Below are positions 9,741 to 50,783 of a DNA stretch of 64,000 bases, one piece after another. The position numbers and the translations under genes were made by a program. The notes beneath the pieces were generated by a model that was not told the DNA's origin, ran no database searches, and saw only the letters and a list, made by a program, of their open reading frames with translations. Each line of letters opens with the position of its first letter. Positions within the stretch are counted from its first letter, which is position 1. The DNA is from Archangium violaceum (GTDB lineage: Bacteria > Myxococcota > Myxococcia > Myxococcales > Myxococcaceae), in the NCBI RefSeq assembly GCF_016887565.1, contig NZ_CP069396.1, forward strand, positions 5,314,001-5,378,000, read 5' to 3'.

Positions 9741-11426
9741 ATGAAGAAGACCCTTCCTCCCTCTGGGAACCCCCAGGGCCTGAGCCGCCGCGCGTTGCTC
9801 GGTGGTGCGGCCGCCGCTGGCACGCTCGTCGCTCTCGATGTCCATGCCGAACCCGCGCCGGGCCACGCCGAGCGCGCTCCCGCCCCCGCTCCGGGCGGCA
9901 AGCCCTTCGAGCTCGAGGAGGCCACCGTCTCCGAGCTCCAGGCCGCCATGACGTCGGGGAAGCACACCGCGCGAGGTCTCGCAGAGCGCTACCTCACGCG
10001 CATCCAGGAGCTGGATCGCTCGGGGGACCTGCCGCTCCTCTCGGTCATCGAGCTCAACCCGGACGCCCTGGCCATCGCCGCCGCGCTCGATGAGGAGCGC
10101 AAGGCGAAGGGACCTCGCGGGCCGCTGCACGGCATCCCCGTGCTCATCAAGGACAACATCGCGACCGCGGACAAGATGCAGACCACCGCCGGCTCGCTGG
10201 CCCTGGTGGGCGCGGTGCCCTCGCGCGATGCGTTCGTGGTGGAGCGGCTGCGGGCCGCGGGCGCGGTCATCCTCGGCAAGACGAACCTCAGCGAGTGGGC
10301 CAACTTCCGCTCCACGCACTCCTCCAGCGGGTGGAGCGGGCGGGGCGGCCAGTGCCGCAATCCCTATGCGCTCGACCGGACGCCGTCGGGCTCGAGCTCG
10401 GGCTCGGGCGCGGCCACCGCCGCGAACTTCTGCGCGGTGTCCGTTGGCACCGAGACGGATGGCTCCATCGTCTCGCCCTCGGCGGCGAGTTCCCTGGTGG
10501 GTATCAAGCCGACCGTCGGGCTCGTGAGCCGCTCGGGCATCATCCCCATCTCCGCGAGTCAGGACACCGCGGGTCCCATGGCGCGCACGGTGGCGGACGC
10601 GGCGGCGCTGCTCGGCGTGCTGGCGGGGATCGACCCGAACGACGCGGTGACGGCCACGAGCAAGGGCCGCGCCCAGGCGGACTACACGCGGTTCCTGGAT
10701 CCGAACGGGTTGAAGGGGGCGCGCATCGGTGTGCCCCGCGAGCGGTTCTTCGGCTACCACCCGGCCACGGACGCGCTCGTGGAGCGGGCGCTGGAGCTCA
10801 TGAAGGCCCAGGGCGCCATCCTCGTCGACCCGGCTCCCATCCCCATGGCCGCGAAGCTGGACGAGCCGGAGCTGGAGGTCCTGCTCTACGAGTTCAAGGC
10901 GGGCGTCGAGGCGTACCTGGCCGGGCTCGGGGACAAGACGCGGCTGAAGACGCTCGCGGACCTCATCCGGTTCAACGAGGAGCACCGCGACAGCGAGCTG
11001 CCCTGGTTCGGCCAGGAGCTCTTCCATCAGGCGCAGGAGAAGGGGGCGCTCACGGACAAGAAGTACCGCAAGGCGCTCGAGGCCTGCCGGAAGCTGTCGA
11101 GGGGGCAGGGCATCGACGCGGTGATGAACAAGCACAAGCTGGACGCGCTGGTGGCGCCGACGCAGGCGCCGCCGGGGCTCATCGACCTGGTGGATGGAGA
11201 CCACTGGCTGGGGAGCAGCTCCACGCCGGCGGCCGTCGCGGGGTACCCGAGCATCACCGTCCCCGCGGGGTACGTGGCCGGACTGCCCGTGGGCCTGTCC
11301 TTCATCGGCCGTGCGTGGAGCGAGCCGACGCTGCTGCGGCTCGCCTTCGCCTACGAGCAGGCCTCCAAGCACCGCCGTCCGCCCGGCTTCGCCCCGACGG
11401 CGGATCTGCGCAAGCCCACCTCGTAG
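9741..11426 (+). CDS. Tat-exported amidase-signature hydrolase
   Basis: A 561-residue protein with a twin-arginine signal (SRRALLGGAAAAGTL, residues 15-29), so it is folded before export. The amidase-signature Ser-cisSer-Lys triad is in place: Lys137 (PVLIKDNI), Ser218 (PSGSSSGSG) and Ser242 (GTETDGSIVSPS). Family members hydrolyse amides ranging from small carboxamides to peptide amides; the substrate is not predictable. The ATG at 9741 sits 7 nt after a TAGTCG hexamer, with no ribosome binding site, which suggests a very short leader. It is divergent from the aquaporin gene. Confidence 0.9.
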   Translation: MKKTLPPSGNPQGLSRRALLGGAAAAGTLVALDVHAEPAPGHAERAPAPAPGGKPFELEEATVSELQAAMTSGKHTARGLAERYLTRIQELDRSGDLPLLSVIELNPDALAIAAALDEERKAKGPRGPLHGIPVLIKDNIATADKMQTTAGSLALVGAVPSRDAFVVERLRAAGAVILGKTNLSEWANFRSTHSSSGWSGRGGQCRNPYALDRTPSGSSSGSGAATAANFCAVSVGTETDGSIVSPSAASSLVGIKPTVGLVSRSGIIPISASQDTAGPMARTVADAAALLGVLAGIDPNDAVTATSKGRAQADYTRFLDPNGLKGARIGVPRERFFGYHPATDALVERALELMKAQGAILVDPAPIPMAAKLDEPELEVLLYEFKAGVEAYLAGLGDKTRLKTLADLIRFNEEHRDSELPWFGQELFHQAQEKGALTDKKYRKALEACRKLSRGQGIDAVMNKHKLDALVAPTQAPPGLIDLVDGDHWLGSSSTPAAVAGYPSITVPAGYVAGLPVGLSFIGRAWSEPTLLRLAFAYEQASKHRRPPGFAPTADLRKPTS

Positions 11427-30253: not shown

Positions 30254-31666
30254 TCAGGCGCTCCGTGTGGCGGGGGTTGTCGAGTCGTCGAGTGAGGCGA
30301 GCAGCGAGTCCAGGCCCGTGCGCGTGACGGTGCGCGGCGAGCCGAGGGGGAGGCACAAGGGCTTGCGGCGGCGCGCCAGCAGGGAGATGAGGGCCGAGGC
30401 CGAGGTCGGACCGTCGCTCTCCTCCAGCCACAGGCCCAGCGCCTCGGCGTTCTCGCGGTAGGTGGGCTCCTGCCGCAGTCGCGTCACCTCCTGGCGCAGG
30501 CGCTCCGCGGTCAGCTCCAGCAGGGGCAGGAACAGCCCGACACCGAGGTACTCCACCCGCCGCGCGTTGTCGTGCTGCTCGCCGCCCACCGGAATCACCA
30601 GCAGGGGCTTGCCCGCCGCCAGCGTCTCGTTGGTGGTGTTGTTGCCCCCGTGGCCGATGACGAGATCCATCTTCGGCAGCAGGTCCACCTGGGGGACGCG
30701 GCGGAAGAGGAGCACGTTGGACGGCAGGGGCTTGGAGATCAGGCTCGGGTAGGCCGCTCCCGCGCTCACGACGACCTGGATGCCCGGCGCGTCGAGTCCC
30801 CGGAGGATGGTGCGGAACACCTCTGGCTTGTCGTTGAAGACGGTGCCGAGCGAGACGTACACCTTGTAGAGGTTGTTGTTCAGCTTCTCGAAGGGGAAGC
30901 CCTCGGCATCGATGCCGCGTCGCGTCGAGAAGCAGGGGCCGACGTAGAAGCAGCTCTGTCCCTCGTTGGAGCGCGGCGCCTCGAGCCCCTCGTGGCTCAT
31001 CACCAGGTTGAGCCAGGGCGAGGCGGGGTTGCGCAGCACGTCGTCCGGACCGGGGCCCAACCCGAGCGAGCGCCGGACCTTGTTCATCTTGCGCGCCAGC
31101 TTCGCGAGCACCTCCGCCTCGGCGTCCTCGGCGGCCTTCAGCTCGGGACCGGTCTGGGTGCCGAGCGGCAGACCGCTGCCCCAGGGGGGCACGCCACGGC
31201 CCCGGAAGGTGAGGCCCGAGTGGTAGACGGCCGCCCAGGGCAGGCCCAGCTTCTCGGCCGCGAGGATGGCCGGGTAGAAGACGAAGTCGGTCACCACCAC
31301 CTCGACGGGGTTCTTCTCCAGCCTGCGGATCACCTCGCGTGCACCCGACTCGGCCCCGGCGGTGAAGAGCTCCAGGGCGATCCGGGTCTCCTGGTAGGCC
31401 ATGCTCCGGGCGAGCCGGATGGCGTGGTAGAGCACGCCGAGTGCGGGACGAAGTCGTTCCAACGGCAGTCCCGCGCGCTCCACCATGGCGGGCACGTCCA
31501 CCACGTTGTTGAGGATGTCTGGCCGCAGCCGGAACCCCAGGGAGGGTGCCCCCGGCACGAGGAGGCGAGGGTTGTAGACACCCTCGACCTTCATCTTCAG
31601 TGCCGTCGACAGCAGCGTGTTGAGGTGTCCCACCGTGGGGTGGCACAGGAATGCGATGTCACTCAT
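30254..31666 (-). CDS. GT1 (MGT/UGT-type) glycosyltransferase
   Basis: A 470-residue GT-B glycosyltransferase. The N-terminus HPTVGHLNTLL carries the acceptor-activating His. The donor-binding C-terminal signature is IGHGGNNTTNETLAAGKPLL...GGEQHDNARRVEYLGVG, as in macrolide, sterol and antibiotic glycosyltransferases. It would transfer a sugar from an NDP-sugar to a small-molecule acceptor. The P450 gene ends 67 bp upstream and the small helical gene follows 6 bp downstream. No sugar-biosynthesis genes are nearby, so a common donor such as UDP-glucose is likely. Confidence 0.9.
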   Translation of the reverse strand: MSDIAFLCHPTVGHLNTLLSTALKMKVEGVYNPRLLVPGAPSLGFRLRPDILNNVVDVPAMVERAGLPLERLRPALGVLYHAIRLARSMAYQETRIALELFTAGAESGAREVIRRLEKNPVEVVVTDFVFYPAILAAEKLGLPWAAVYHSGLTFRGRGVPPWGSGLPLGTQTGPELKAAEDAEAEVLAKLARKMNKVRRSLGLGPGPDDVLRNPASPWLNLVMSHEGLEAPRSNEGQSCFYVGPCFSTRRGIDAEGFPFEKLNNNLYKVYVSLGTVFNDKPEVFRTILRGLDAPGIQVVVSAGAAYPSLISKPLPSNVLLFRRVPQVDLLPKMDLVIGHGGNNTTNETLAAGKPLLVIPVGGEQHDNARRVEYLGVGLFLPLLELTAERLRQEVTRLRQEPTYRENAEALGLWLEESDGPTSASALISLLARRRKPLCLPLGSPRTVTRTGLDSLLASLDDSTTPATRSA

Positions 31667-31733
31667 GTACCCCTATGATGGACGAGCACGCGGTCGCATG
31701 CGAGTGCCACTCCCTCGGCTGGGGTTCGTTTTG

Positions 31734-32954
31734 CTACGGGTGTGGTCCAGGTTGGCGCGTCGCGTCGGCGCTCTGCTGGTGAGTCGGTTCCAGGTGGAGC
31801 GATAGGCTCAGGGGGCCTCTGGCGATGATCGACCGCGACCAGGAGAGCTCGCTCCGCGAGAGGGAGAAGCCGCGGATTCGCGAGAAGAGTGCCTCGAGCC
31901 CCAGGCGGGCCTCCAGGCGAGCGAGCATCGCTCCCAGGCAGAAGTGGGGGCCGTGTCCGAAGGACAGGTGGCTCTGGCCCTCGCGCTCCAGGAGGAAGCG
32001 GTCCGCCTGGGGGAAGCGGCGCTCGTCGCGCATGGCCGCGCCCATCAGGACGACGACGAGGGCCCCGCGGGGGATGGTGACTCCGGAGAGCTCCACGTCC
32101 TCGGTCGCGAGCCGGAGGCTGCTCTGCCCGGGTGGCTCGTAGCGGAGGACCTCCTCGACGAGCCGGGGGATGAGCGCCGGCTCCGCGCGCACGCGCTCCA
32201 GCTCGTGCGGATGGTCCGCGAGGACGACCATCGTGTTGGCGAGGAGGTACACGGTCGTCTCCATGCCTGCGGGCACCATGCCGAAGAGGAAGCTCAGGAG
32301 CTCCTCGTGCGTCAGCGCCTCCGAGCGGAGCAGCTCGCTCACCAGGTCATCGCTGGGCTCGGCGCGCCGGGCCTCGATGAGGGCCTCGAAGCAGTGCTCC
32401 ATCTCCGCGAGGCTTTGACGGACCTCTGCAATGCGCTCGGGCGAGGGCTGGCTGGCGGGGATGCTGACCAGATCGTCCGCCCAGCGCTTCAGACGCGACG
32501 CCATGGAAGGCTCCAGGCCGAAGAAGAGGTTCAGGACGCGGGTGGGGAGGGGCAGGGCGAAGTCGGCAACGAAGTCCACGTCCTGGCGGCGCACGGCGGC
32601 CTCGGCGAGCTCCTCGGCGATGGCGCGGATGCGCGGCTCCAACCGGCTCAGCGCCGGACCGCCGAAGGCCTTGCCGACCAGGGTGCGCAGTCGGGTGTGC
32701 TCGGGCGGATCCTTCATGACCAGGGAGTCGGCCGTGGGATTGCGCTCCAGCCAGGGCGGCCGGAAGCTCCGGCCCAGTCCCTCCGAGGAGAAGCGCCGGG
32801 GATCCTTGAGGACGGCGACCACGTCGTCGTAGCGGCTGATGGCCCACATGCCTCCCGGCTCCACCTGGCACACCGGCCCGCGTCGGAGCTCCTCGTAGAA
32901 CGGGTAGGGATTGGCCCTCACTTCGGGTGCCATCAGGTTCAGGGACTGGTTCAT
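31734..32954 (-). CDS. Cytochrome P450
   Basis: A 406-residue bacterial class P450. The I-helix oxygen-binding motif is AGMETT (229-234), the K-helix ExxR is E268-R271, and the heme loop FGHGPHFCLG places the ligand at Cys339. It would hydroxylate or otherwise oxidise a small hydrophobic substrate using external ferredoxin. The ATG at 32954 has GAGGAA 8 nt upstream; the open extension to 33164 is not used. It heads the operon with the glycosyltransferase. A decayed paralogue with a nearly identical N-terminus lies at 60724. Confidence 0.93.
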   Translation of the reverse strand: MNQSLNLMAPEVRANPYPFYEELRRGPVCQVEPGGMWAISRYDDVVAVLKDPRRFSSEGLGRSFRPPWLERNPTADSLVMKDPPEHTRLRTLVGKAFGGPALSRLEPRIRAIAEELAEAAVRRQDVDFVADFALPLPTRVLNLFFGLEPSMASRLKRWADDLVSIPASQPSPERIAEVRQSLAEMEHCFEALIEARRAEPSDDLVSELLRSEALTHEELLSFLFGMVPAGMETTVYLLANTMVVLADHPHELERVRAEPALIPRLVEEVLRYEPPGQSSLRLATEDVELSGVTIPRGALVVVLMGAAMRDERRFPQADRFLLEREGQSHLSFGHGPHFCLGAMLARLEARLGLEALFSRIRGFSLSRSELSWSRSIIARGPLSLSLHLEPTHQQSADATRQPGPHP

Positions 32955-33077
32955 CTCGGGGTTCCTCGCGGGGGTGGAGTGAAGCGGTTCCACGCGCGAG
33001 GGTGGCAATTCGCGGGCCAGTCGCCGTGCTCGCCGTTCTCCGAGGGAGGACGGAGCACGGGACCCCGAGGTCCCCCG

Positions 33078-33102
33078 CGCCGGTCGGTCGAAGCGACCGG
33101 CG
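33078..33102 (-). terminator. Hairpin downstream of the MopE-type lipoprotein
   Basis: A perfect 9-bp inverted repeat (CGCCGGTCG, 33078-33086; CGACCGGCG, 33094-33102; 7-nt loop) sits 28 bp past the lipoprotein stop on the minus strand. There is no U-tract. It probably ends that transcript before the P450 gene. Confidence 0.55.
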
Positions 33103-33130
33103 GGGTCGTTCAAAACGGAAGAGCGGGGTT

Positions 33131-35704
33131 CTAGGGCTCGAGCTGGACGGCGTAGGAGGTCCACTTCGCGGCATCCGAGGAATTGTCGCGGAGGATCTCC
33201 AACCTGCCGTCGGGGGTGAACCGGAGCCGCCCGGTGGCCACGCCGATGATGTCATCGCCTCTGTGTCCGCTCTCGCCGCCTCCCTGACCGCTGAAGCCCT
33301 GGCTGCTGGAGAGGAGCAGGGTCCGGGTGGGATCCACCACCGTGGGGAGGGTCGCGGTGGCGTTGTTGGAGCCACCGTTCGCGGTCAGCGTGCTGGTCTG
33401 GACGAGAACATGGGAGGGGAATGTGATGCGCTCCCAGACGATGGAGGAGATGGCGTTGCCGAGGTCGCACGACGTGTTGCCCGCCGAGCGAGAGAAGCGC
33501 AGCTGGGTGTCGTTGACGATCTCGCCCCGCACCATGCGGTTGCAGATCTCGGTGTTGGCGACCAGGGTATTCAAGCTGGACAGCAACACGGAGTGGTTGG
33601 AATCCGCCGTGGCGAGGCCCGACACATCGACCGAGCTCTTGTTGGCGTTCATGGACGCCGTCACCCCCCGGGTCACCGAGAGGCCATCGAGCTCCACGAC
33701 CTGCAGGGCGTAGCGGGTGGGGGCGCAGCCCCCCTGGTTGGTGATGTCCACCCGGGTGTTGTTGGCGAGCTGGGCCATCACGACGTCGTTGGAGTCGACC
33801 GTTGTTCCGGCTTGCGCGACACTGAAGAGGACGAAGGTCTTCTCCGGCTGCACCGTGGTGATGTTCACGGAGGTCGTCAGGCCCGTGCAAGTCACCAGTC
33901 GGTGCTGGACGCGCAGGCCGCGGAGGAGTTCGACCACCTGCCATTGAATGAAGGCGTTTCCCTGATTGCTGTCGCGGTCGCAGGTGATCTTGTTGTTGTC
34001 GGGCAGCGCGCAGCGGACGAACGCGGAGCCGGGAGTGTTGTTGCTGGTGCTGGCCTGGAAGATGAGGAAGGCCTGGTCGCGGTTGCGCAGCGGAATCGGC
34101 AGGGCACAATCGACGCTCGTGTCACCGTTCTTCAGGAGGCACTCGCCCCGGCGGACCGCGGGAACCACCGTCTCCGACTGCTTCGCCTGGGCGAGCGTCG
34201 ATGCGGACGCGGACACGGTGATCTCCACCGTCCCGCCGGTCCTCCCCTTGAAGCGGAAGCCCGTATCGGTGACTCCGTCGGGAAGGTTGAGCGTGGAGGT
34301 GGTGGCGCCCGCGCATTGGGTATCCGTGTAGAAACCGAAGCCCTCCGCCGGCTGGGCATTCAGGGTGAGGGTGGTGCCTCCCGGGATGGAGGTCACGTTG
34401 TCGAACTCGTCCCGGATCCCCACGGTCACGGAGCTCGAGCACTCACCCGCCAGCAGGGTCTGCCCGGTGGTGGGGCCGAGGACCAGTTTCTTGGGTTCGC
34501 CGGGCTTCACGGTCTGCTTCTGCTTGTCGCCGGTGACTTCGAGCGCCGAGGCCGAGACCTCGAACGAGTCCGCACGGGTGGCGCGGAAATAGAAGGTGAG
34601 CGCCGAGTCCTGAGCGGAGAAGGTCGGGGAGGTGAGGGGCGTGGCACAGCTCGCGTCCTGGTAGAGGGCGGCCTGCGCCGAGGGCACGGGCGTGAGGGTG
34701 AGGGCCTGGACCGTCCCGGAGGTGGGGTTGTCGAACTCGTCGCGCCGCTCGACGGTGATGGGGGCGCACTCGCCCGCCTTCGGGGTCCGCGGTGGAGAGG
34801 TGAAGACGAGCTTCGACACCAGTCCCGGGATGAGGGTGTGGCCCAGGGTGGCCGGCTGGAACCCGCTGGACGTGGCGGTCAGCTCTCCGGCCCCGGGGCG
34901 GGTGCCGCGCACGTAGAAGGAGAGGGTGCTGCTACCCGGAGCGATGGAGGGCGACGACAGGGGACGTGTGCAGTCCGAGTCCGCGTGGAGGGTGGTGCCG
35001 GCCGGGAGCGTATTCTCGAGCGCGACAGGGGTGGCGAGCTGGGGCGCCGCCGGGTCGTTCTTGGAGTCGTTGCGCTGCACGACGAACGGCCCCGAGCACT
35101 GGCCCGCGCGCGCCTGTCTCGGGGGGCTGGTGAAGGCGAGCGAGGTGGGCATCCAGGCGCAGGCCGTGGGCGAGCACGTGGCATCGTCACAGCCTCGGTT
35201 CCCGTTGCAGTTGAGGTCCTCGCTGCCGTCGCACACCTCCTGGGCGCTGGGGTTGCGAGGCGTCCGGTCATCGTCGCAGTCCGGGCCACCGCTCTGGTCG
35301 GAGATGAAGCCGTCCTGGTCCGCGTCCTCGGAGAGGGAAGGCCGTAGCAGCTCGATGGGGATGGTGTGGATCTGCTCCGGATCGAAGCGCGCCTCGTAGC
35401 TCCTGCTCCGTCCGTTGAAGCTCAGCGCCTTCTCGTCCTGGCAGTTGGCGCCCCACAGGGCCCTGGCCCGGAGCTGGAGCTCCTGGGGCAGGTCGCCCCG
35501 GAAGATGGCGATGCGCAGCTCGTTCCGGTCGGCGCGACGGGCGATCAGTCGGCTGTGCAGGACCGTCCCGTCATTCGAGACCACGTCCAGGGCAATGCAG
35601 CTCGCGGGCAGCTGGGGATCGATCTGGATGACGGCCTGGATGGCTCCTGGATCCTGGCTGCAGCCGACGAGCACGAGGCTGAGGGCGAGGGCGACTCGTT
35701 TCAT
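33131..35704 (-). CDS. Repeat-rich surface lipoprotein with MopE-type metal-binding motif
   Basis: An 857-residue lipoprotein (lipobox LVGC, Cys15). Residues 127-172 form a Ca/Cu-binding MopE-like segment: DADQDGFISDQ, PDCDDD and CDGSEDLNCNGN. Three Ig-like repeats of ~105 residues follow (188-293, 298-401, 406-517), each opening with L.FTSPPR or a variant and a GEC/GQC. Residues 520-857 hold about four further repeats ending in WQVVEL, LQVVEL, IVWERI and YAVQLE. It is likely a cell-surface or outer-membrane-vesicle protein, perhaps adhesive. It has no enzymatic motif. Confidence 0.82.
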   Translation of the reverse strand: MKRVALALSLVLVGCSQDPGAIQAVIQIDPQLPASCIALDVVSNDGTVLHSRLIARRADRNELRIAIFRGDLPQELQLRARALWGANCQDEKALSFNGRSRSYEARFDPEQIHTIPIELLRPSLSEDADQDGFISDQSGGPDCDDDRTPRNPSAQEVCDGSEDLNCNGNRGCDDATCSPTACAWMPTSLAFTSPPRQARAGQCSGPFVVQRNDSKNDPAAPQLATPVALENTLPAGTTLHADSDCTRPLSSPSIAPGSSTLSFYVRGTRPGAGELTATSSGFQPATLGHTLIPGLVSKLVFTSPPRTPKAGECAPITVERRDEFDNPTSGTVQALTLTPVPSAQAALYQDASCATPLTSPTFSAQDSALTFYFRATRADSFEVSASALEVTGDKQKQTVKPGEPKKLVLGPTTGQTLLAGECSSSVTVGIRDEFDNVTSIPGGTTLTLNAQPAEGFGFYTDTQCAGATTSTLNLPDGVTDTGFRFKGRTGGTVEITVSASASTLAQAKQSETVVPAVRRGECLLKNGDTSVDCALPIPLRNRDQAFLIFQASTSNNTPGSAFVRCALPDNNKITCDRDSNQGNAFIQWQVVELLRGLRVQHRLVTCTGLTTSVNITTVQPEKTFVLFSVAQAGTTVDSNDVVMAQLANNTRVDITNQGGCAPTRYALQVVELDGLSVTRGVTASMNANKSSVDVSGLATADSNHSVLLSSLNTLVANTEICNRMVRGEIVNDTQLRFSRSAGNTSCDLGNAISSIVWERITFPSHVLVQTSTLTANGGSNNATATLPTVVDPTRTLLLSSSQGFSGQGGGESGHRGDDIIGVATGRLRFTPDGRLEILRDNSSDAAKWTSYAVQLEP

Positions 35705-35757
35705 GGGGCCAGCATTCTAACCAGGAGATCGCTGGATGCGCCGTGCCGCGTGCGCTT

Positions 35758-37050
35758 TCACTTTTCGAGAACGATGAACTCCACGCGCCGGTTGAGCTCA
35801 CGTCCGCGAGGCGTGAGGTTGGGGGCCTTCGGCCGGGTGTCACCGAAGCCCGCCGACTCGATGCGTGCCGGGTCCACTCCCGCCTTCACGAGCCACTCCA
35901 CCACCGCGCGCGCCCGTGCCTCGGAGAGCTGCGGGCGCTCGGACTCCGCGGCCTCCATGTTGTCGGAGTGTCCCTCGATGCGCAGGCGTCGCTGGGGGCG
36001 GCGCACCAGGGCGTCCACGACGTGCTGGAGGAGGGCGGCCCCGCGTGGCTCGAACGCCGCCTGGCCCATGCGGAAGCGGAGCGGCTGCCGCGGCTCGAGC
36101 CGGTTCTTCTTCTCCTGCACGAGCTTCCTCTTCGGAGCACGCACCAGCTCGAAGCCCAACGGCAGCTTCTTGTCTCCCGCGAGCTCCACCCGGCGCGTCT
36201 GCGCGAGATAGCCGGGAGCGAGGATGTCCACCGTGTAGGCGCCCGGTGGCATCTCCACCTCGGTGGCGGTCCTGGCTCCACGCTTGAGTGCCACCTGCCG
36301 CTGGGTGGCCCCGCGCACGAGGAGCGTCGCCCCCACGGGCTTGCGGCGCGCCGTGGCTCGCACCAGCAGTCGCCCCTTCTGTGTGGCGTCCGCGGTGCTC
36401 GGCCGCGGCTCCGGGCTGCTCGCGGTGGAGGCCGTTGGGGGCGCTGGCACCGGCTCGGGGAGCTCGCCGTCGGCGAGCTTCGCGGTCATCTCCACCGTCA
36501 CGTCGTGCGACAGCTTGAGCTTGAGCCGGGGATCCTTCGCGTCCGGCACCAGCACGGTCACGGCCTTCACGTCCACGCGCAGCCCGCGTTGCGCCTGGAA
36601 GTTGAGCGTGGAGGTCATGTTCCACAGGAAGCCGGAGGTCTCGCTGAACAGGTTCCACGAGGCGTCCATGTAGACGACGTTGGACACGAGCGTGTGCGGA
36701 CCCTCCGCCACCTGCCGGGAGGTCAGCACCCGCGGTCCGGGCGAGCCCAGCTCCTCCACCGGAGGCACGTCGAGAGGCTGGCCATCGAGCGTGAAGTGGA
36801 CCTCGACGAGCTTGTGCTCCGCCGGGTCCAGGCCGGCGAACAGCAGCCGTACCTCCGGCGGCGAGCTGGTCACCATCTCCTGGAGCTGCCGGTCCAGCTC
36901 GGCGCGTACCCGCTCGGTGCGCGCCTGCTCGGCGGACACGGGATCCTCCGCGCGAGCGGTGCTGGCGCAGAGCAATACCGTGAGGAGGGCGAGCTTCAGT
37001 GGCGAATCCAAGGGGGTGGTCCAGGCCTGGGGGGCGCCGGCATCGTACAT
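35758..37050 (-). CDS. OmpA-family peptidoglycan-binding protein with PEGA-like domain
   Basis: About 430 residues. A hydrophobic signal (LALLTVLLCASTARA) is followed by a beta-rich domain, a PEGA-like segment (~225-295: GRLLVRATARRKPVGATLLV, PPGAYTVDILAPGYL) and a C-terminal OmpA domain (~325-425: LRIEGHSDN, LSEARARAVVEWLVKAG, FGDTRP, GRELNRRVEFIV). The last binds peptidoglycan and anchors an envelope complex. The start is uncertain: ATG 37050 or a TTG at 37011, which would place the signal peptide at the N-terminus. Neither has a clear ribosome binding site. Confidence 0.85.
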   Translation of the reverse strand: MYDAGAPQAWTTPLDSPLKLALLTVLLCASTARAEDPVSAEQARTERVRAELDRQLQEMVTSSPPEVRLLFAGLDPAEHKLVEVHFTLDGQPLDVPPVEELGSPGPRVLTSRQVAEGPHTLVSNVVYMDASWNLFSETSGFLWNMTSTLNFQAQRGLRVDVKAVTVLVPDAKDPRLKLKLSHDVTVEMTAKLADGELPEPVPAPPTASTASSPEPRPSTADATQKGRLLVRATARRKPVGATLLVRGATQRQVALKRGARTATEVEMPPGAYTVDILAPGYLAQTRRVELAGDKKLPLGFELVRAPKRKLVQEKKNRLEPRQPLRFRMGQAAFEPRGAALLQHVVDALVRRPQRRLRIEGHSDNMEAAESERPQLSEARARAVVEWLVKAGVDPARIESAGFGDTRPKAPNLTPRGRELNRRVEFIVLEK

Positions 37051-37074
37051 CGAGAAGGCCCGGCCCGGTGGTTC

Positions 37075-37683
37075 TCAGCCCCAGGTGAGCGCGAACTCGC
37101 TGTCCGCGGGGCCGATCTGCTGGCCCGTGACCTTCACGTTGGCCACTCCCGTGGCCATGAGTACCTCACTCAACACTCCCTCGAAGTAGGGGTAGGGAAT
37201 GACATTGCCGTGGATGAAGGCGGTGTACTGCCCGGGGCCCATCCACTGCACCGTGCTGATCCCATGCTGCCAGCCCGTCCGGTAGGCGGACGGCAGGCCC
37301 TCGGCCAGACGCTTGGGGTTCCTCCCCGCCAGCAACAGCATCGTCCTGCCCACCGTGTTCCGCAGGAACTCCTGGGCCACGTTTCTCCCGAGGTGCCGCA
37401 GGGCTCTCTCGAAGCCGCCGTGCTTCTCGCTCAGGCCCCACGCCGCGGTGTAGAGCAGCCGGAGCAGGGAGCTGATGGGGTAGTTGAAGAAGGCGGCGAA
37501 CTTCTCCTGCCCGAGCACCTCGATGCAGCGCTTCAACACCGCCTCGTCGTCCTGACGCCGGACCTCGTCCAGGGCACAGTTGAAGAAGTAGCCGCACGCG
37601 GTGTCCTCGGGCCTGACCAACGCCAGCCGTCGTTCCAACTCCTGTGGCGAATCCATGCTCGCCAGGCTCTGCACCAAAGTCAT
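37075..37683 (-). CDS. TIGR02265/DUF2378 myxobacterial paralogous family protein
   Basis: A 202-residue protein of the DUF2378 (TIGR02265) family, known as an expanded paralogous family in Myxococcus and relatives, with no assigned biochemical function. Recognisable stretches are LERRLALVRPEDTACGYFFN, NYPISSLLRLLYTAA and FEGVLSEVLMATG. The start at 37683 (MTLVQSLAS) gives the family's usual length. The frame is open far upstream, but that extension is antisense to the FkbM gene. It is divergent from the NRPS operon, separated by 366 bp. Confidence 0.82.
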   Translation of the reverse strand: MTLVQSLASMDSPQELERRLALVRPEDTACGYFFNCALDEVRRQDDEAVLKRCIEVLGQEKFAAFFNYPISSLLRLLYTAAWGLSEKHGGFERALRHLGRNVAQEFLRNTVGRTMLLLAGRNPKRLAEGLPSAYRTGWQHGISTVQWMGPGQYTAFIHGNVIPYPYFEGVLSEVLMATGVANVKVTGQQIGPADSEFALTWG

Positions 37684-38049
37684 GTCTTTCCCAGGGGAAG
37701 CGGGAGAGCCCTCTACCTCATGCGTGCCGGGCTCGCAGCTGACTGGTGTCGTTTCCCAGGGGGGTAAACCTAACATGTGGCTCTTCTCCCGATGTGGCTT
37801 TGCTCCCAGTCGTGATCGGTCCGGGTGCTCTCCACATGGAGTGAGAGCATGTGCATCGGTGGCGCGGTGCGTACCCATCGGGACGCAGTCGCAGTCGGGT
37901 TCTGGACGTCGCGCGAGTCGCGCATCCCGGGCGCATGACCTCCGCGGTGGCTCCAGAGGCGGAAGAGCACATCTCGGACTTCGATAAAATGGAGCCTGGC
38001 ACGAAGCCTGGGCGCGGCGTGGCGCATCGGCTAGTGTTCGCGCCAAAAC
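37684..38049. other. 366-bp divergent intergenic region upstream of the NRPS operon
   Basis: No gene is supported here. The stretch must hold promoters for the DUF2378 gene (minus) and the FkbM-MFS-NRPS-JmjC operon (plus). A TAGTGT hexamer at 38032-38037 ends 12 nt before the FkbM ATG and could be its -10 box with a very short leader; no ribosome binding site is present. A TATA-like TAAAAT occurs at 37985-37990. Confidence 0.4.
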
Positions 38050-38742
38050 ATGTACACCTTCCGCACTCTCTTTCGGACCCATGGCGTGAAGCCCGGCGGT
38101 CTCATCTACGCTGGCGCTCACGTTGGTGAGAACCTCGGCGCCTTCCTGGACGCTGGCTTCGAGTCGGTGCTCGCCATCGAGCCCAACCCGGAGGACTTCT
38201 CCAAGCTCGCGCGGCTCGAGTCCCAGCGCATCCGCTGCGTCAACAACGCCCTGTCGGACAGTGATGGGGCGTGCACCTATTTCATGATCCCCGGTGTCCC
38301 CACGCTCAACTCGCTGCTCGAGCCGGACTACGACTACTGGGTCCGGCAGGTGGGCAAGGAGGCCGCGGACGCGCACGCTCCGGCGAAGGTGCAGGTGGAG
38401 GCACTCCGGCTCGACACCCTGATGGAGCGGCACGGGCTGGCGGGTAGGTACAACGTGCTCTACATGAACATCCAGGGCGGCGAGCTGAAGGCGCTGCGCG
38501 GTGCGCCCCGGACGCTCCAGGACATCGACACCCTCTTCGCCGAGGTGAACTTCGAGAAGCGCTACACGGGCTGCGTGCTCTTCGACGAGCTGGACGCGTT
38601 CCTGCGCGACAATGGCTTCCGCCTCATGTACCTGGAGAAGTTCCCGCACTCGGCGGGCGAGCACGGCGAGGCGCTCTACCGGCGCATCTCCTCGCTGCCG
38701 CGGCCGACGCTGGAGCCCACGTCCGACCTGGAGGCGCGCTAG
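38050..38742 (+). CDS. FkbM-family methyltransferase
   Basis: A 230-residue SAM-dependent methyltransferase of the FkbM (Methyltransf_21) family, which O-methylates hydroxyl groups on polyketides, peptides or sugars. Seen are IYAGAHVGENLGAFL (motif I region), VLAIEPNPEDF and LYMNIQGGELKALRGA, the family's hallmark second half. It is the first gene of the NRPS operon, with the MFS gene 12 bp downstream. That makes tailoring of the peptide product its likely job, for example methylation of a hydroxyl introduced by the JmjC protein at the operon's end. Confidence 0.9.
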   Translation: MYTFRTLFRTHGVKPGGLIYAGAHVGENLGAFLDAGFESVLAIEPNPEDFSKLARLESQRIRCVNNALSDSDGACTYFMIPGVPTLNSLLEPDYDYWVRQVGKEAADAHAPAKVQVEALRLDTLMERHGLAGRYNVLYMNIQGGELKALRGAPRTLQDIDTLFAEVNFEKRYTGCVLFDELDAFLRDNGFRLMYLEKFPHSAGEHGEALYRRISSLPRPTLEPTSDLEAR

Positions 38743-38754
38743 CGCGCGAGGGGG

Positions 38755-40092
38755 GTGGGCTCACAACCAGCGAGCGTCCGTCGAGTGGCCACGGGCTTCC
38801 AGGCCTTTTTCATCCTCTGGATCGGCCAGTGGCTCTCCCTGCTCGGCTCGCGCCTGTCGCGGTTCGCGCTCGGTGTGTGGCTCTTCCAGCGCACGGGAGC
38901 GGTGGCGGACTACGCGCTCATGGCCGCGTGTGACATGGTGCCCACCCTGGTGCTCACGCCCTTCACCGGCGTGCTGGCGGACCGCTATGACCGGCGCACG
39001 GTGATGCTGCTGGCGGACACGGGCGCCGCGCTGGGCATGCTGGTGGCCGTGGGGCTCGTCCTCGCGGGGCGGTTCGAGCCCTGGCATCTCTACCTGGCCA
39101 TCGTGGTGAGCGCGAGCGCCGGTGCGCTGCACTCCCCCGCCTGGTCCGCCGCGACGGCGCTCATCGTTCCCCGGGCGCAGCTGGGCCGGGCGGTGGGATT
39201 GACGCAGGTGGGCGAGGGCGTGGCGGACATCGTCGTCCCGTCGCTGGCGGGAGTCCTGCTCGTGTCGACGGGCATCATGGGCGCGCTCGTGGTCGACTTC
39301 ACGTCCTTCCTGGCGGGAATCTCCGTACTGCTCGCGTTCCGCTTCCCGCCCGTGCCGCGCGTCGCGGGCGAGGCGCCGGTGCGCTCGGTCTGGGGCGAAG
39401 TGGCCGAGGCCTGGGCGTACACGGCCGCGCGGCCCGCGCTCGTGGGTCTGCTGGTGCTCTTCGGCTTCGTGATCCTCGCCCTCTGCGCGGTGCAGGTGCT
39501 CGTGATGCCGATGCTGCTGGCGCGGGCCTCACCGGAGGCCATGGGCCTCGTCCTCTCCGTGAGTGGGGTGGGCGCGCTGTGTGGCAGCGTGGCGATGAGC
39601 GTGTGGGGCGGGCCTCGGCGGCGTGTGGACGGGATGCTGGGCGGCGGGGCGGTGGTGGGCCTGGGCCTCGTGGTGGGCGGGGCGGTGCCGTCTCTGCTGG
39701 CGATGGCGGTGGTCGGCTTCGTGATCATGTTCTGCGCGCCGGTGGTGCTCGTGTGCCACGCGGCCATCTGGCAGACCCGGGTGCCGGCCGAACTGCAGGG
39801 CCGGGCCTTCAGCCTGCGGCGGGTGTTGGGCGCATGCATCTCGGTGGTGACCTACCTGTCGGTGGGGCCGCTCGTGGACCGGGTGCTGGAGCCGCTGCTC
39901 CTGCCCGGTGGGGCGCTCGTCGAGAGCGTCGGGCGCGTCATCGGCGTGGGGCAGGGCAGGGGCTCCGGCCTGCTCTTCATCATCATTGGCGTGGTGCTGG
40001 TGCTCATGATGGCACTGGGCCGCGCATCGCGCCTCATCCACAACATAGAAGACGCGCTGGAGCCAGGTGCCGCCCCGGTGCCGAGCGCATAG
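38755..40092 (+). CDS. MFS exporter (MFS_3 / macrolide-efflux type)
   Basis: A 445-residue 12-helix transporter like Mef-type macrolide exporters and those found in NRPS/PKS clusters. Motif A is GVLADRYDRRTVML. Conserved SAGALHSPAWSAATALIVPR and LGRAVGLTQVGEGVADIVVP follow. The GTG start lies 12 bp after the FkbM stop. Position between the methyltransferase and the NRPS gene indicates export of, or self-protection against, the cluster product. A T-rich run (40105-40112) follows the stop, but no strong hairpin is formed, so read-through into the NRPS gene is expected. Confidence 0.9.
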   Translation: MGSQPASVRRVATGFQAFFILWIGQWLSLLGSRLSRFALGVWLFQRTGAVADYALMAACDMVPTLVLTPFTGVLADRYDRRTVMLLADTGAALGMLVAVGLVLAGRFEPWHLYLAIVVSASAGALHSPAWSAATALIVPRAQLGRAVGLTQVGEGVADIVVPSLAGVLLVSTGIMGALVVDFTSFLAGISVLLAFRFPPVPRVAGEAPVRSVWGEVAEAWAYTAARPALVGLLVLFGFVILALCAVQVLVMPMLLARASPEAMGLVLSVSGVGALCGSVAMSVWGGPRRRVDGMLGGGAVVGLGLVVGGAVPSLLAMAVVGFVIMFCAPVVLVCHAAIWQTRVPAELQGRAFSLRRVLGACISVVTYLSVGPLVDRVLEPLLLPGGALVESVGRVIGVGQGRGSGLLFIIIGVVLVLMMALGRASRLIHNIEDALEPGAAPVPSA

Positions 40093-40154
40093 CCCCCTTC
40101 GAACCTTTTTTTCACTCCAGAGAGCGAGAGCGCGCCTTGCGCGCGTGAATCCGC

Positions 40155-47333
<7,179 letters not shown>

Positions 47334-47375
47334 TTCCATGGTAGTTAGTTTTTTCTCGGAAACGAGCCAGCCATC

Positions 47376-48203
47376 ATGAGCAAGAGACCCGTTGACGTCC
47401 GCGAGAACCTGACCCCCGAGGAGTTCATCCACGAGTACATCGAGAAGAACCGACCCGTCATCGTGACGGGCGCGATGAAGAACTGGCGCGCCCCGTCCAC
47501 CTGGACGCCCGAGAGCTTCCGGGAGCTCTTTGGCGACATGCCGGTGGAGGTGACGGCGGACGGTCCCGTCGTGCTGGAGAAGATGCCGTTCTCGGCCTTC
47601 TACGAGCACCTGAAGGCCGCCAGCGAGGGCCCGGGCGAGCCGGACGGCAGCATCGACAAGCTGCGCTACATGCGCATGCGCGAGCTGGAGTCGCTGGAGA
47701 AGGTGAATGGCGACTGGGCGCGGCCCGGCTTCATGCCCGAGGGTGGCTACGTCATCCCCTTCGCCCCGTTCGGGATGGATCCCACGCGCAAGCGCTTCCC
47801 GGGCTTCGGGTTGTTCATCTCCCCCAAGGGCGCGGCCAGCAAGCTGCACGTGGATGGCATTCGCTCCAATGCCATCGTCTGTCAGGTGTACGGCTCGAAG
47901 CGCTGCTTCATGTTCGCCCCGGACCAGGAGGCGCTGCTGCCGGATCAGGAGTCGCGCCGCGCGCGCAAGCTGAAGCGGCTGGACTACGAGCGTCCGGATT
48001 TCGGCAAGGCGAAGATGGTGGAGTTCGACGTCAACCCCGGAGAGATCGTCTTCGTGCCTCGCCAGTGGTTCCACGAGGTGCACACGCTGAACACCAGTAT
48101 CTCGCTGACGTACAACTTCGTGCACGGCTGCGAGGCGCTCGGCTTCGCGTCGTGGTTCCTCCGTACGTCCATCACCAACCCGGCGTCCCACAACGTCGGG
48201 TAG
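47376..48203 (+). CDS. JmjC/cupin_8 Fe(II)/2-oxoglutarate-dependent hydroxylase
   Basis: A 275-residue JmjC-fold protein. The iron triad is visible as HxD (KLHVDG, His158 and Asp160) and a distal His (RQWFHEVH, His233 most likely). Cupin_8 proteins in NRPS operons hydroxylate amino-acid side chains, either free or bound to a carrier protein. It starts 42 bp after the NRPS stop and is the last gene of the operon. Hydroxylation here followed by FkbM methylation would give a methoxylated residue, which is inference from gene content. Confidence 0.88.
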   Translation: MSKRPVDVRENLTPEEFIHEYIEKNRPVIVTGAMKNWRAPSTWTPESFRELFGDMPVEVTADGPVVLEKMPFSAFYEHLKAASEGPGEPDGSIDKLRYMRMRELESLEKVNGDWARPGFMPEGGYVIPFAPFGMDPTRKRFPGFGLFISPKGAASKLHVDGIRSNAIVCQVYGSKRCFMFAPDQEALLPDQESRRARKLKRLDYERPDFGKAKMVEFDVNPGEIVFVPRQWFHEVHTLNTSISLTYNFVHGCEALGFASWFLRTSITNPASHNVG

Positions 48204-48220
48204 GTGTCCCGGGTTGCTCT

Positions 48221-48236
48221 CGGGCTCTCTAGCCCG
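48221..48236. terminator. Short hairpin between convergent NRPS operon and pheA
   Basis: CGGGCT-ctct-AGCCCG, a 6-bp perfect stem spanning the pheA stop codon, lies in the 25-bp gap between the convergent stops. It is weak, but it is the only structure available to separate the two transcripts. Confidence 0.35.
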
Positions 48237-49371
48237 GGGGCAACTCCACGCGGGGATAGGTGCCGAGCAGCCGCATCGCGGTGGTGTAGGGCCGCAGGGC
48301 CTGGAGCACGGCCTCGATCGACGCGGAGGCGGCATGCCCCTCCAGGTCCAGGAAGAAGCGGTAGGCCCACGGTGTGCCCGGCAGCGGCCGGGACTCCAGC
48401 CGGGCCAGGTTCACCCCGTGCTCGGCGAGCACCAGCAGCGCCTTGCTGAGCGTGCCGGGCCTGTTCTCCAGCACCATCAGCAGCGACGTCTTGCAGGGCA
48501 CGTCCGCGGGCAGGGGCGTGGCCTCCCGCGCCACCTCGAGGAAGCGGGTGAAGTCCGCGCTGGCTCCCTGGAGATCGCGCGCCAGCACCTCCAGCCCGAA
48601 GCGCTGCGCCGCCGAATCACTGGCGATGGCCGCCACGGTGGGATCATTCCCCTCGCGCACCCGCTGGGCCGCGCCGCCCGTGTCCAGCTCGGGGAGCTGG
48701 AGCACCCAGGGCAGCTGCTCGCGCAGGAAGGTCTCGCATTGGAGCAGGGCCTGCGGATGGGAGCGCACGATGCGCAGCGACTCCAGCTTCGCCCCGGGCA
48801 GCCCGAGCAGCCGGTGCTGCACCTGGCCCACCAGCTCGGAGATGATGGTGATGCCCTCCTCGGCGAGCGCATCGTACGTCTCGTACATGGCCCCCGCGGT
48901 GGTGTTCTCGATGGGCAGCAGCGCCAGGTCCACCTCGCCCTGGCGGAGCGCGTCCACCGCGCCGCGCGAGGTGTCGAAGCCGGTGAGGAGCACTCCGCCG
49001 GGCCGGCCCCCGTAGCGCTTGTGCGCCGTCAGGTGGCTGTAGGAGCCCTCCACGCCCGGGTAGGCCACCCGGAGCGGCGTGGTGTCCAGCGTCGTCACCA
49101 GCGCCTGCTGCCGGGCCACGGACATCTCCATGATGAAGCGGTAGAGACGCTCCACCTCATGGGGATCCAGCTGACGGGCCACCGCCGCGGCGCGGATGCG
49201 GCGCAGCAGCAGATCCTCCCGCCGTTGATCCCGGATGGGGGACGCCGCGGCCAGCTTGGCCCGGGCGATGTCCTCGGCCAGATCCATCCGGCGGCGCAGG
49301 GCGTCGAGGAGATCCTCGTCCACCCGCTCGATGGCTACACGCAGTTGCTGCAGATCCGGAACGTCCGACAT
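48229..49371 (-). CDS. pheA: Chorismate mutase / prephenate dehydratase (P-protein)
   Basis: A 380-residue bifunctional enzyme of phenylalanine biosynthesis. The N-terminal ~90 residues are an AroQ chorismate mutase (LRVAIERVDEDLLDALRRRM). The prephenate dehydratase domain (~97-285) shows YPGVEGSYSHLTA, LLPIENTTAG and the catalytic TRF motif (DFTRFLEV). The C-terminal ACT domain (KTSLLMVLENRPGTLSKALL, RLESRP) gives feedback control by phenylalanine. The start at 49371 is the first Met of the conserved protein. It is a housekeeping gene and not evidently part of the neighbouring NRPS operon. Confidence 0.95.
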   Translation of the reverse strand: MSDVPDLQQLRVAIERVDEDLLDALRRRMDLAEDIARAKLAAASPIRDQRREDLLLRRIRAAAVARQLDPHEVERLYRFIMEMSVARQQALVTTLDTTPLRVAYPGVEGSYSHLTAHKRYGGRPGGVLLTGFDTSRGAVDALRQGEVDLALLPIENTTAGAMYETYDALAEEGITIISELVGQVQHRLLGLPGAKLESLRIVRSHPQALLQCETFLREQLPWVLQLPELDTGGAAQRVREGNDPTVAAIASDSAAQRFGLEVLARDLQGASADFTRFLEVAREATPLPADVPCKTSLLMVLENRPGTLSKALLVLAEHGVNLARLESRPLPGTPWAYRFFLDLEGHAASASIEAVLQALRPYTTAMRLLGTYPRVELPPG

Positions 49372-49481
49372 GGCGACCTGAACTCCCTGGAGGGATGCGA
49401 GCACCCGCACCGAACGAATTCGCAGTGTACCCGACGGGATTCCAGGTCGACCCCGATTTCGTGGACACCCCGGAGGGGCGC

Positions 49482-50636
49482 CTACGCCTCGGCCATCAAC
49501 CCGTCCGCCTGGCGGCGGCGACGGCGCAGCACCGCGCGCAGCCACTGGCGTGCCGGCTCCTCCACCCAATGGAAGGCCGCCAGGGAGAAGAGCACGGCCA
49601 CGCCCAGGTAGCAGGAGAAGAGGAGGGGTCCGGGGGTCACCCCCAGGGCGCTGCCCGCCTGGACCACGTAGCTCTTGATGGGCTGGTGGAGGATGTAGAG
49701 GCCGAAGCTGGAGCGCCCCAGGAGGACGAGCACGGGGTGCCGCAGCCAGTGCTGGCCCGGCGTCTGCCGGAGGGCCAGCCCGTAGACGATCATCGCGAAC
49801 AGCGGCAGCAACAGCCCATTGTGCAGCAGCAGCGGGGGGATGCGAGGGCTCACCAGCAGCACGCCCAGGAGCCCGGCGGCTCCGGCGGGCGCGAGCAGTC
49901 GCAGGGCCGGCGGTACCGGCAAGGACTGGGAGTGCCTCAGGAGGTACATCCGTCCGAGCACGATGCCGGCCAGGAACTCGGGCAACCGCATCAGCGGGTT
50001 GAAGCCGGCCAGGCCCATCCAGAAGCCACTCGCCGCCGCATCGATGCCCCAGACGAAGGGCGCGGTGAGCAGCAGCGAGGCACCGGTGCAGGCGGCGAGC
50101 ATGGGCACCAGCCACCGCGCGCGGAGCCGTCCCACCCGCTCCGCCAGCAGGGGGTACAGCAGGTAGAAGAAGGCCTCGTTCGACAGCGACCAGCCCGGGG
50201 CGTTCCAGGCCGAGGCGAGCTGCGGCAGCCAGGCCTGTACCAGTCCCAGGTACGCGGCTCCGGCCACCATCGACTTGAGGGCCCCGAGCAGGGGAGGGTG
50301 GTGGTCGAGGAAATAGCCGACCGCGCGCGGGGCATCGAGCAGGAAGCTCAGCAGGTAGATCGGGTAGATGCGCGCCACCCGGGCCTTCCAGAACGCTCCA
50401 CGGTCCAGCGGCTTCTCCGGCCCGGTGTCTCCGTAGGCGTACGCGAGCACGAACCCCGACAGCAGGAAGAAGAAGCTGACGGAGACGAACCCCGTGCTGA
50501 CGAGCGTGTGGACCCAGGCCGGAAGCGCACGCGCCGAATCCCCGAGCAGGTACAGGTTGTGGAACAGCACCACGTGCAGCGCCGCGAAGGCACGCAGGCT
50601 GGTCAGCTCCAGGAACTCGGGCTTGGCTCGACCCAT
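49482..50636 (-). CDS. Acyltransferase 3 family membrane protein
   Basis: A 384-residue integral membrane protein with about ten helices. The N-terminal LTSLRAFAALHVVLFHN contains the essential Arg and His of the acyltransferase-3 family (OafA/NodX type). SFFFLLSGFVLAY and WSLSNEAFFYLLYP are also family hallmarks. Such proteins O-acylate cell-surface glycans, lipids or antibiotics. The start could be 50636 or 50648; neither has a good ribosome binding site, and the frame upstream is open but antisense to the next gene. Confidence 0.9.
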   Translation of the reverse strand: MGRAKPEFLELTSLRAFAALHVVLFHNLYLLGDSARALPAWVHTLVSTGFVSVSFFFLLSGFVLAYAYGDTGPEKPLDRGAFWKARVARIYPIYLLSFLLDAPRAVGYFLDHHPPLLGALKSMVAGAAYLGLVQAWLPQLASAWNAPGWSLSNEAFFYLLYPLLAERVGRLRARWLVPMLAACTGASLLLTAPFVWGIDAAASGFWMGLAGFNPLMRLPEFLAGIVLGRMYLLRHSQSLPVPPALRLLAPAGAAGLLGVLLVSPRIPPLLLHNGLLLPLFAMIVYGLALRQTPGQHWLRHPVLVLLGRSSFGLYILHQPIKSYVVQAGSALGVTPGPLLFSCYLGVAVLFSLAAFHWVEEPARQWLRAVLRRRRRQADGLMAEA

Positions 50637-50783
50637 GGTGTCCAGCATAGGACAGTCGGTGCGCGAGCGCGCCAGCGATCTCCCATGCCTGCCCGGCCCC
50701 CTCTTCTGCGTCCAGGCGCTGTCAGGAACCTCGGCGGAACGGCGTCCTCTCGCGCGCCAACCCGTCGATGAAAGTGGGACTCG

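What the first reader, a model, noticed from the sequence alone, without database searches (positions are those of the whole stretch)
38050..48203. Compact four-gene NRPS operon: FkbM methyltransferase, exporter, C-A-T-C-A-T-TE synthetase, JmjC hydroxylase
A minimal, self-contained pathway. The leading C domain implies acylation or capping of the first residue, and two modules with a TE give a very small product. The flanking JmjC and FkbM genes suggest hydroxylation then O-methylation. I do not recognise a known compound family with this exact gene set, and neither A-domain code matches a standard substrate.
Basis: partly seen in the sequence, partly recalled or inferred. Interest (0 to 1): 0.7.

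Follow-up and report, generated by a model that had tools for sequence, protein, structure and literature searches.

The report
Detached finishing half of lipopeptide line
These four genes, from a soil-dwelling myxobacterium, form a compact block that looks like the finishing half of a two-part assembly line for a fatty-acid-capped peptide; in this strain it lies far from any starting half, so it probably borrows one from elsewhere in the chromosome or works alone.

Summary
The four genes and their domains are as described. They form a conserved cassette: three other Myxococcaceae carry it at about 70% identity, and in a close relative the 10.3-kb block is missing. The 'self-contained, N-capped dipeptide' reading is weakened. 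C1 is an elongation-type (LCL) condensation domain, not a lipid starter. Its closest kin are N-terminal C domains of releasing synthetases (NRPS-B) paired with NRPS-A proteins (starter C, three modules, no TE, conserved C-terminal tail). In Archangium violaceum and A. lansinium the cassette lies beside such an NRPS-A and is its only NRPS-B-type partner found. All four cassette genomes carry NRPS-A, against 8 of the other 92 in the family. In the window strain the only NRPS-A found lies 0.45 Mb away, is of another subtype, and has its own NRPS-B. Best reading: a mobile releasing half that adds two residues (A1 Val/Ala-like; A2 non-standard) to a chain from NRPS-A, with JmjC hydroxylation and FkbM O-methylation. 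Whether it uses the distant NRPS-A in this strain, or acts alone, is untested. Product unknown; comparison with known clusters (MIBiG) could not be run.

The parts
37929..48230 (.). Block absent from relative G004, where 116 bp stand in its place; contains the four genes
   Evidence: Flanks 31192-37928 (89.6% DNA identity) and 48231-50703 (94.1%) are colinear in G004:C14
38050..38742 (+). FkbM-family methyltransferase, 230 aa; predicted O-methyltransferase
   Evidence: PF05050 63.2 bits and TIGR01444 59.7 bits, both over cut-off; 71-73% identical in three cassette genomes
38755..40092 (+). MFS exporter, 445 aa, GTG start
   Evidence: MFS_3/MFS_1 80 bits; 55-62% identical in the other cassettes and 51% to the MFS gene next to NRPS-A in G031
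40155..47333 (+). NRPS, 2392 aa: C1-A1-T1-C2-A2-T2-TE; proposed releasing synthetase (two-module NRPS-B)
   Evidence: Pfam domains; 72-73% identical in three cassettes; colinear with modules 1-2 of 3-module NRPS-B proteins (46% G000B, 55% G040B) and with two-module G031B (46%, full length)
40155..40226 (+). N-terminal stretch running into C1 (..EELQKGEAFAFPAS), conserved in NRPS-B heads; possible docking acceptor
   Evidence: Similar heads in 11 NRPS-B and cassette proteins; NRPS-A tails end I.R..R..R(K/R)VKR in 9 of 9. The docking role is inferred
40200..41519 (+). C1, LCL-type condensation domain, motif HHIVADGWS intact
   Evidence: Tree; PDB score comparison; nearest kin outside the cassettes G040B C1 66% and G000B C1 57%, then generic domains at about 52%
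41589..43079 (+). A1, code DVFWIGGCFK (Val/Ala/Abu-like)
   Evidence: compared with codes in PMC12283262
43383..44726 (+). C2, condensation domain, motif HHAVSDGWS intact; sister to the second C of G000 NRPS-B
44745..46274 (+). A2, code DPLEFGTVDK, invariant in four genomes, no standard match; nearest A domains by sequence mostly carry the Ser code DVWHxSLV(D/E)
46533..47330 (+). TE, type I thioesterase with GWSFGG nucleophile motif
   Evidence: PF00975 115 bits; motif
47376..48203 (+). JmjC/Cupin_8 Fe(II)/2OG-type hydroxylase, 275 aa; His158-x-Asp160...His233 triad and Lys175 conserved
   Evidence: closest folds JMJD6, JMJD5, JMJD7 and TYW5

Best explanation
The cassette encodes the releasing half of a two-protein lipopeptide synthetase, with its tailoring enzymes and exporter, rather than a complete pathway. 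An NRPS-A protein (starter C domain, then three modules with a Gly code, an unassigned residue and a basic-type residue, no TE) builds an acyl-tripeptide and, probably through its conserved basic C-terminal tail, hands the chain to an NRPS-B-type protein. The window NRPS is a two-module NRPS-B: C1 accepts the peptide, A1 adds a small aliphatic residue, A2 adds an unusual residue, and the TE releases an acyl-pentapeptide. JmjC hydroxylates one side chain, FkbM methylates a hydroxyl, and the MFS protein exports the product. In the window strain the block is not next to an NRPS-A; the one NRPS-A found in this genome is at G000:C1:5816275-5825835, so the cassette most likely draws on it in trans, alongside that locus's own three-module NRPS-B. 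Shown: domain content, conservation, empty site, C1 type, homology to NRPS-B, adjacency to NRPS-A in two Archangium species, co-occurrence. Inferred: chain transfer, use of the distant NRPS-A, residue identities, docking, order of tailoring.
For: C1 is LCL, not starter. C1 and C2 are sisters of the first two C domains of NRPS-B at 5.826-5.836 Mb in the same genome, and the whole dimodule is colinear with NRPS-B proteins. NRPS-A plus NRPS-B pairs sit together in several further genomes, with congruent A and B trees for the subtype that the window genome also carries. A two-module NRPS-B of the same architecture lies in the same cluster as NRPS-A in G031. The cassette lies beside NRPS-A, AGAT-like and desaturase-like genes in A. 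violaceum and A. lansinium, and no other C1-clade synthetase was found in those genomes. All 4 cassette genomes carry NRPS-A against 8 of the other 92 (Fisher p 1.5e-4, or 1.2e-3 with the two sister species merged). The tail ..R(K/R)VKR is found in all nine NRPS-A proteins read and in no other listed NRPS protein of this genome.
Against: In the window strain the cassette is 0.45 Mb from the only NRPS-A found, which has its own adjacent NRPS-B and belongs to the other subtype; the AGAT gene that accompanies the cassette's natural partner is absent. G040 also has the cassette and its NRPS-A/NRPS-B on different contigs. The docking motifs are only a conserved sequence pattern. The co-occurrence test ignores relatedness among genomes. 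The four genes occur as a unit without NRPS-A, which a self-contained pathway would also explain.
Confidence: 0.55

Rival explanations
1. Self-contained minimal pathway: C1 is idle or takes an acyl-CoA or free acid, the two modules make a (capped) dipeptide or diketopiperazine, the TE releases it, JmjC and FkbM tailor it.
For: The four genes occur as one unit without NRPS-A: empty site in G004 and different flanks in the window and G040. Genes are intact and under purifying selection. An exporter is included.
Against: C1 is not of the starter type and its kin are N-terminal C domains of synthetases paired with NRPS-A. Every cassette genome also carries NRPS-A.
Confidence: 0.22
2. Orphan cassette: acquired without its cognate subtype-II NRPS-A, it makes nothing or little in this strain and persists through recent acquisition.
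For: No subtype-II NRPS-A or AGAT found in the window genome. The block is missing from a close relative with 90-94% identical flanks, so it may be recent.
Against: All active-site motifs are intact and dN/dS is below 1. G040 shows a similar separate arrangement, so separation from NRPS-A is not unique to this strain.
Confidence: 0.15
3. The cassette NRPS takes its chain from a different synthetase or carrier protein of this NRPS-rich genome (102 matches to the condensation family), not from NRPS-A.
For: The genome holds many NRPS proteins, some of whose ends were cut in the stretches read.
Against: No other listed NRPS protein carries the NRPS-A tail, and no other synthetase was seen paired with this C1 type.
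Confidence: 0.08

Closest known systems
Split-locus Pseudomonas lipopeptide synthetases (xantholysin: xtlA, xtlB and xtlC in two unlinked DNA regions, PMC3656897)
   Same: Synthetases for one lipopeptide encoded at unlinked places
   Different: There the unlinked parts are each other's partners; here the window strain has one NRPS-A with an adjacent NRPS-B plus a second, unlinked NRPS-B-type cassette that in other species lies beside NRPS-A
Myxobacterial NRPS-A/NRPS-B pairs found here (window genome 5.816-5.836 Mb, G024, G026, G034, G069, G071, G040 C134, G031 C5)
   Same: Colinear NRPS, same N-terminal C clade, TE at the end, hydroxylase or exporter nearby in several
   Different: Three modules (Ala-Gly-Ser or Val-Gly-like-Dab-like codes) in all but G031; an Asp/Asn-type hydroxylase in place of JmjC in several; no close FkbM gene
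PbsQ/BpmG Orn hydroxylases of the biphenomycin-type RiPPs (PMC12257519)
   Same: Cupin-like/JmjC protein in a peptide pathway; hydroxylates a basic (Orn) residue
   Different: RiPP pathway, not NRPS; direct sequence relationship to the window JmjC was not tested
JMJD6, JMJD5, JMJD7, TYW5
   Same: Closest solved structures by sequence and fold; most hydroxylate Lys or Arg side chains in proteins (own knowledge)
   Different: About 16-22% identity; eukaryotic protein or tRNA substrates

Membership tests
Lipid-starter (Cstarter) condensation domain | Closer to CDA-C1 and RzmA-Cs than to elongation domains | tested here: not met
   C1: Txo2 354, Txo1 347, TycC 260 bits against CDA-C1 82 and RzmA-Cs 61. 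Control starter at 5816347: RzmA-Cs 145, CDA-C1 112, Txo2 100. Tree places C1 inside the LCL group
LCL elongation condensation domain | Intact HHxxxDG motif and position among LCL domains, apart from E and DCL groups | tested here: met
   HHIVADGWS; tree; group names assigned from motifs and position, without NaPDoS
NRPS-B (releasing synthetase of the NRPS-A/B family described here) | N-terminal C of the NRPS-B clade, colinear modules, TE at the C-terminus | tested here: met
NRPS-B (releasing synthetase of the NRPS-A/B family described here) | Encoded beside an NRPS-A | tested here: inconclusive
   Met for the same cassette in G003 and G005; not met in the window strain (0.45 Mb apart) or in G040 (different contigs)
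NRPS-B (releasing synthetase of the NRPS-A/B family described here) | Accepts the peptide chain from NRPS-A | not testable with these tools
   Needs in vitro transfer or gene deletions
JmjC/Cupin_8 Fe(II)/2OG oxygenase | HxD...H facial triad and 2OG-binding Lys | tested here: met
   H158, D160, H233 and K175 invariant in seven relatives; fold matches JMJD5/6/7, model pLDDT 63
FkbM methyltransferase | PF05050/TIGR01444 above curated cut-off | tested here: met
   63.2 bits (cut-off 22.7), 59.7 bits (37.7)
FkbM methyltransferase | Methylates an oxygen of the peptide product | not testable with these tools
   No solved relative by sequence
A characterised natural-product cluster (MIBiG entry) | Same gene set and known product | not tested
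   MIBiG/antiSMASH not available; paper searches found no description

The most novel reading that the evidence does not exclude
One starter synthetase (NRPS-A) serves two releasing synthetases encoded at distant loci, so the window strain makes two lipopeptides from one acyl-tripeptide: a hexapeptide through its adjacent three-module NRPS-B and a hydroxylated, O-methylated pentapeptide through the cassette. Releasing halves would then be exchangeable parts that spread between myxobacteria by themselves.
Probability: 0.35. Interest if true: 0.72.

Novelty: new variant of a known kind. Interest (0 to 1): 0.52.

Why it matters
If releasing halves of NRPS assembly lines can be picked up as four-gene cassettes and plugged into a starter synthetase at a distant locus, cluster-by-cluster product prediction (which would call this a dipeptide) is wrong for such cases. 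Nature would also already be doing the subunit swapping that NRPS engineers attempt, with a short tail/head motif as the candidate connector. The A2 code and the JmjC/FkbM pair point to an undescribed modified residue.

Tried and rejected
A genome-contig scan with the single JmjC sequence found nothing; the seven-sequence alignment worked. Orn as the A2 substrate: DPLEFGTVDK shares D235, E278, G301 and D331 with the Orn code DVGEIGSIDK (PMC3992020), but its nearest A domains by sequence mostly carry the Ser code, so the substrate is left open. Flanking genes as pathway members (DUF2378 and OmpA upstream, chorismate mutase-prephenate dehydratase downstream): rejected, since the flanks are present without the cassette in G004 and homologues were not found in the fetched stretches around the other cassettes. 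Third module of G040 NRPS-B as a marker: too divergent to tell NRPS-B from generic modules. The two junctions were checked for shared repeats of 9 bp or more: none. FkbM against PDB: no hit. Paper searches for the compound family gave nothing usable.

Full report
WHAT IS THERE. The window is G000:C1:5314001-5378000 of a 13.2-Mb genome with 102 matches to the condensation-domain family. Catalytic motifs are intact: HHxxxDG in both C domains, GGHSL/GGHSM in the T domains, GWSFGG in the TE, and HxD...H plus Lys in JmjC.

CONSERVATION AND MOBILITY. JmjC at 68-70% occurs in three of the other 95 family genomes searched, and FkbM at 71-73% in the same three. All four genes lie there in the order FkbM-MFS-NRPS-JmjC. 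In relative G004 the flanks are colinear at 90-94% DNA identity and the block 37929-48230 is missing, replaced by 116 bp. No direct or inverted repeat of 9 bp or more links the two ends. Whether this is gain in the window strain or loss in G004 is not settled; the scattered distribution and different flanks favour gain. dN/dS estimates against the window are 0.28-0.57 (simple counting method, not corrected for high GC).

C1 IS NOT A STARTER. Against solved structures C1 scores 354 and 347 bits to Txo2 and Txo1, 270 to 5u89 and 260 to TycC, but 82 to CDA-C1 and 61 to RzmA-Cs. The genome's own domain at 5816347 gives the opposite pattern, 145 and 112 bits to the starters RzmA-Cs and CDA-C1. A tree of 101 C/E domains places C1 among the LCL domains. 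It is sister (support 100) to the first C of the NRPS at 5825832-5836142, and C2 is sister (97) to the second C of the same protein.

THE A/B FAMILY. At 5816275-5825835 the genome encodes NRPS-A (three modules beginning with a starter C, no TE), followed by NRPS-B (three modules with TE) and an Asp/Asn-type hydroxylase. The same NRPS-A/NRPS-B pair occurs in G024, G026, G034, G069 and G071 (the ORFs of G026 are broken up in its draft assembly). In G040 a three-module NRPS-B, an EctB-like aminotransferase, an amidinotransferase (AGAT-like) and NRPS-A lie together. In G031 a two-module NRPS-B (2416 aa, C-A-T-C-A-T-TE, 46% to the window NRPS) and NRPS-A lie 15 kb apart in one cluster. In A. lansinium and A. 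violaceum the cassette itself lies divergently beside a desaturase-like gene, AGAT (PDB matches HsvA, SxtG and human AGAT) and NRPS-A. Among C1 relatives in those two genomes the cassette stands alone; the next hits are generic at about 52% or less. NRPS-A-type module 2 (code DVHDCGYLNK) passes the threshold in 12 of 96 family genomes, including all four cassette genomes: Fisher p = 1.5e-4, or 1.2e-3 with the two sister species merged. A truncated NRPS-A-like gene in G049, followed by an aminotransferase and a JmjC homologue, falls below that threshold. These tests do not correct for relatedness. The six other genomes compared for the starter C (G002, G004, G006, G035, G039, G041) have only distant matches (E of 1e-54 or weaker, against 1e-106 or stronger).

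CONNECTORS. All nine NRPS-A proteins read end in I.R..R..R(K/R)VKR, and the NRPS-B and cassette heads share a short stretch close to (D/G)E(V/A)(F/Y)(V/A)FPAS, with variations. No other NRPS protein listed from this genome ends like that (some ends lie outside the stretches read). That these are docking elements is inference. A and B trees agree for subtype I; the window genome's NRPS-A is subtype I with its own NRPS-B, while the cassette groups with the three other cassettes. So the cassette's cognate subtype-II NRPS-A and the AGAT gene were not found in the window genome.

SUBSTRATES. A1 resembles Val/Ala codes. A2, DPLEFGTVDK, is invariant and unassigned. It has acidic residues at 278 and 331, as in the Orn code DVGEIGSIDK, but its nearest A domains by sequence mostly carry a Ser code. 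The JmjC model (pLDDT 63) matches JMJD6, JMJD5, JMJD7 and TYW5; most of these act on Lys or Arg side chains (own knowledge). PbsQ and BpmG, cupin/JmjC enzymes of another peptide class, hydroxylate an Orn residue (PMC12257519). A hydroxylated basic residue, O-methylated by FkbM, is therefore the favoured but unproven tailoring outcome.

MECHANISM AND ALTERNATIVES. Favoured: the cassette is a releasing half that extends and releases a chain made by NRPS-A. In the window strain it would do so in trans with the NRPS-A 0.45 Mb away. Unlinked lipopeptide synthetase genes are known, for example xantholysin in two unlinked regions (PMC3656897). What would be unusual is a second, exchangeable releasing half. 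Against: subtype mismatch, distance, and presence as a unit without NRPS-A. The self-contained dipeptide and orphan readings remain open. Gene deletions with LC-MS would decide.

VERDICT. The interpretation as a self-contained, N-capped dipeptide pathway is weakened by the C1 type and by the company the cassette and its relatives keep. The product is unknown, and comparison with known clusters (MIBiG) could not be run.

Noticed in passing
G000:C1:5815147-5837564 (L056, L075): Two-protein six-module lipopeptide line (codes Gly, unassigned, Lys-like, Ala, Gly, Ser) with a desaturase-like protein whose best NCBIfam match, below cut-off, is the GntB Arg hydroxylase, and an Asp/Asn-type hydroxylase; also in five other genomes of the family, Corallococcus among them. 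No product found in the papers searched.
   Followed up: partly
L040-L043, L045, L046 around 10001-10860; L044 510-1292: JmjC relatives (about 31%) in Xenorhabdus and Photorhabdus directly downstream of large NRPS/PKS-like genes and near a 3-hydroxyacyl-CoA dehydrogenase-like gene; the Chromobacterium copy lies near the contig end.
   Followed up: no
L028:9821-12855: Corallococcus sp. AS-1-6: JmjC, MFS and FkbM homologues (37-48%) side by side next to an NRPS on the other strand with a Ser code; the tailoring trio occurs with another synthetase.
   Followed up: partly
L027:9664-10446 (G000:C1:6437663-6438445): JmjC paralogue (43-45%) in the window genome with no NRPS hit in the 20-kb stretch around it.
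   Followed up: no
all NRPS-A proteins, second A domain: Code DVHDCGYLNK is nearly invariant (one DVHDGGYLNK) across genera while the third code varies; substrate unknown.
   Followed up: no
L031:7235-8662: Reverse-transcriptase (RVT_1) gene just beyond NRPS-A in A. lansinium, with a very similar protein in A. violaceum (L030:8352-9779); possible retron or group II element.
   Followed up: no
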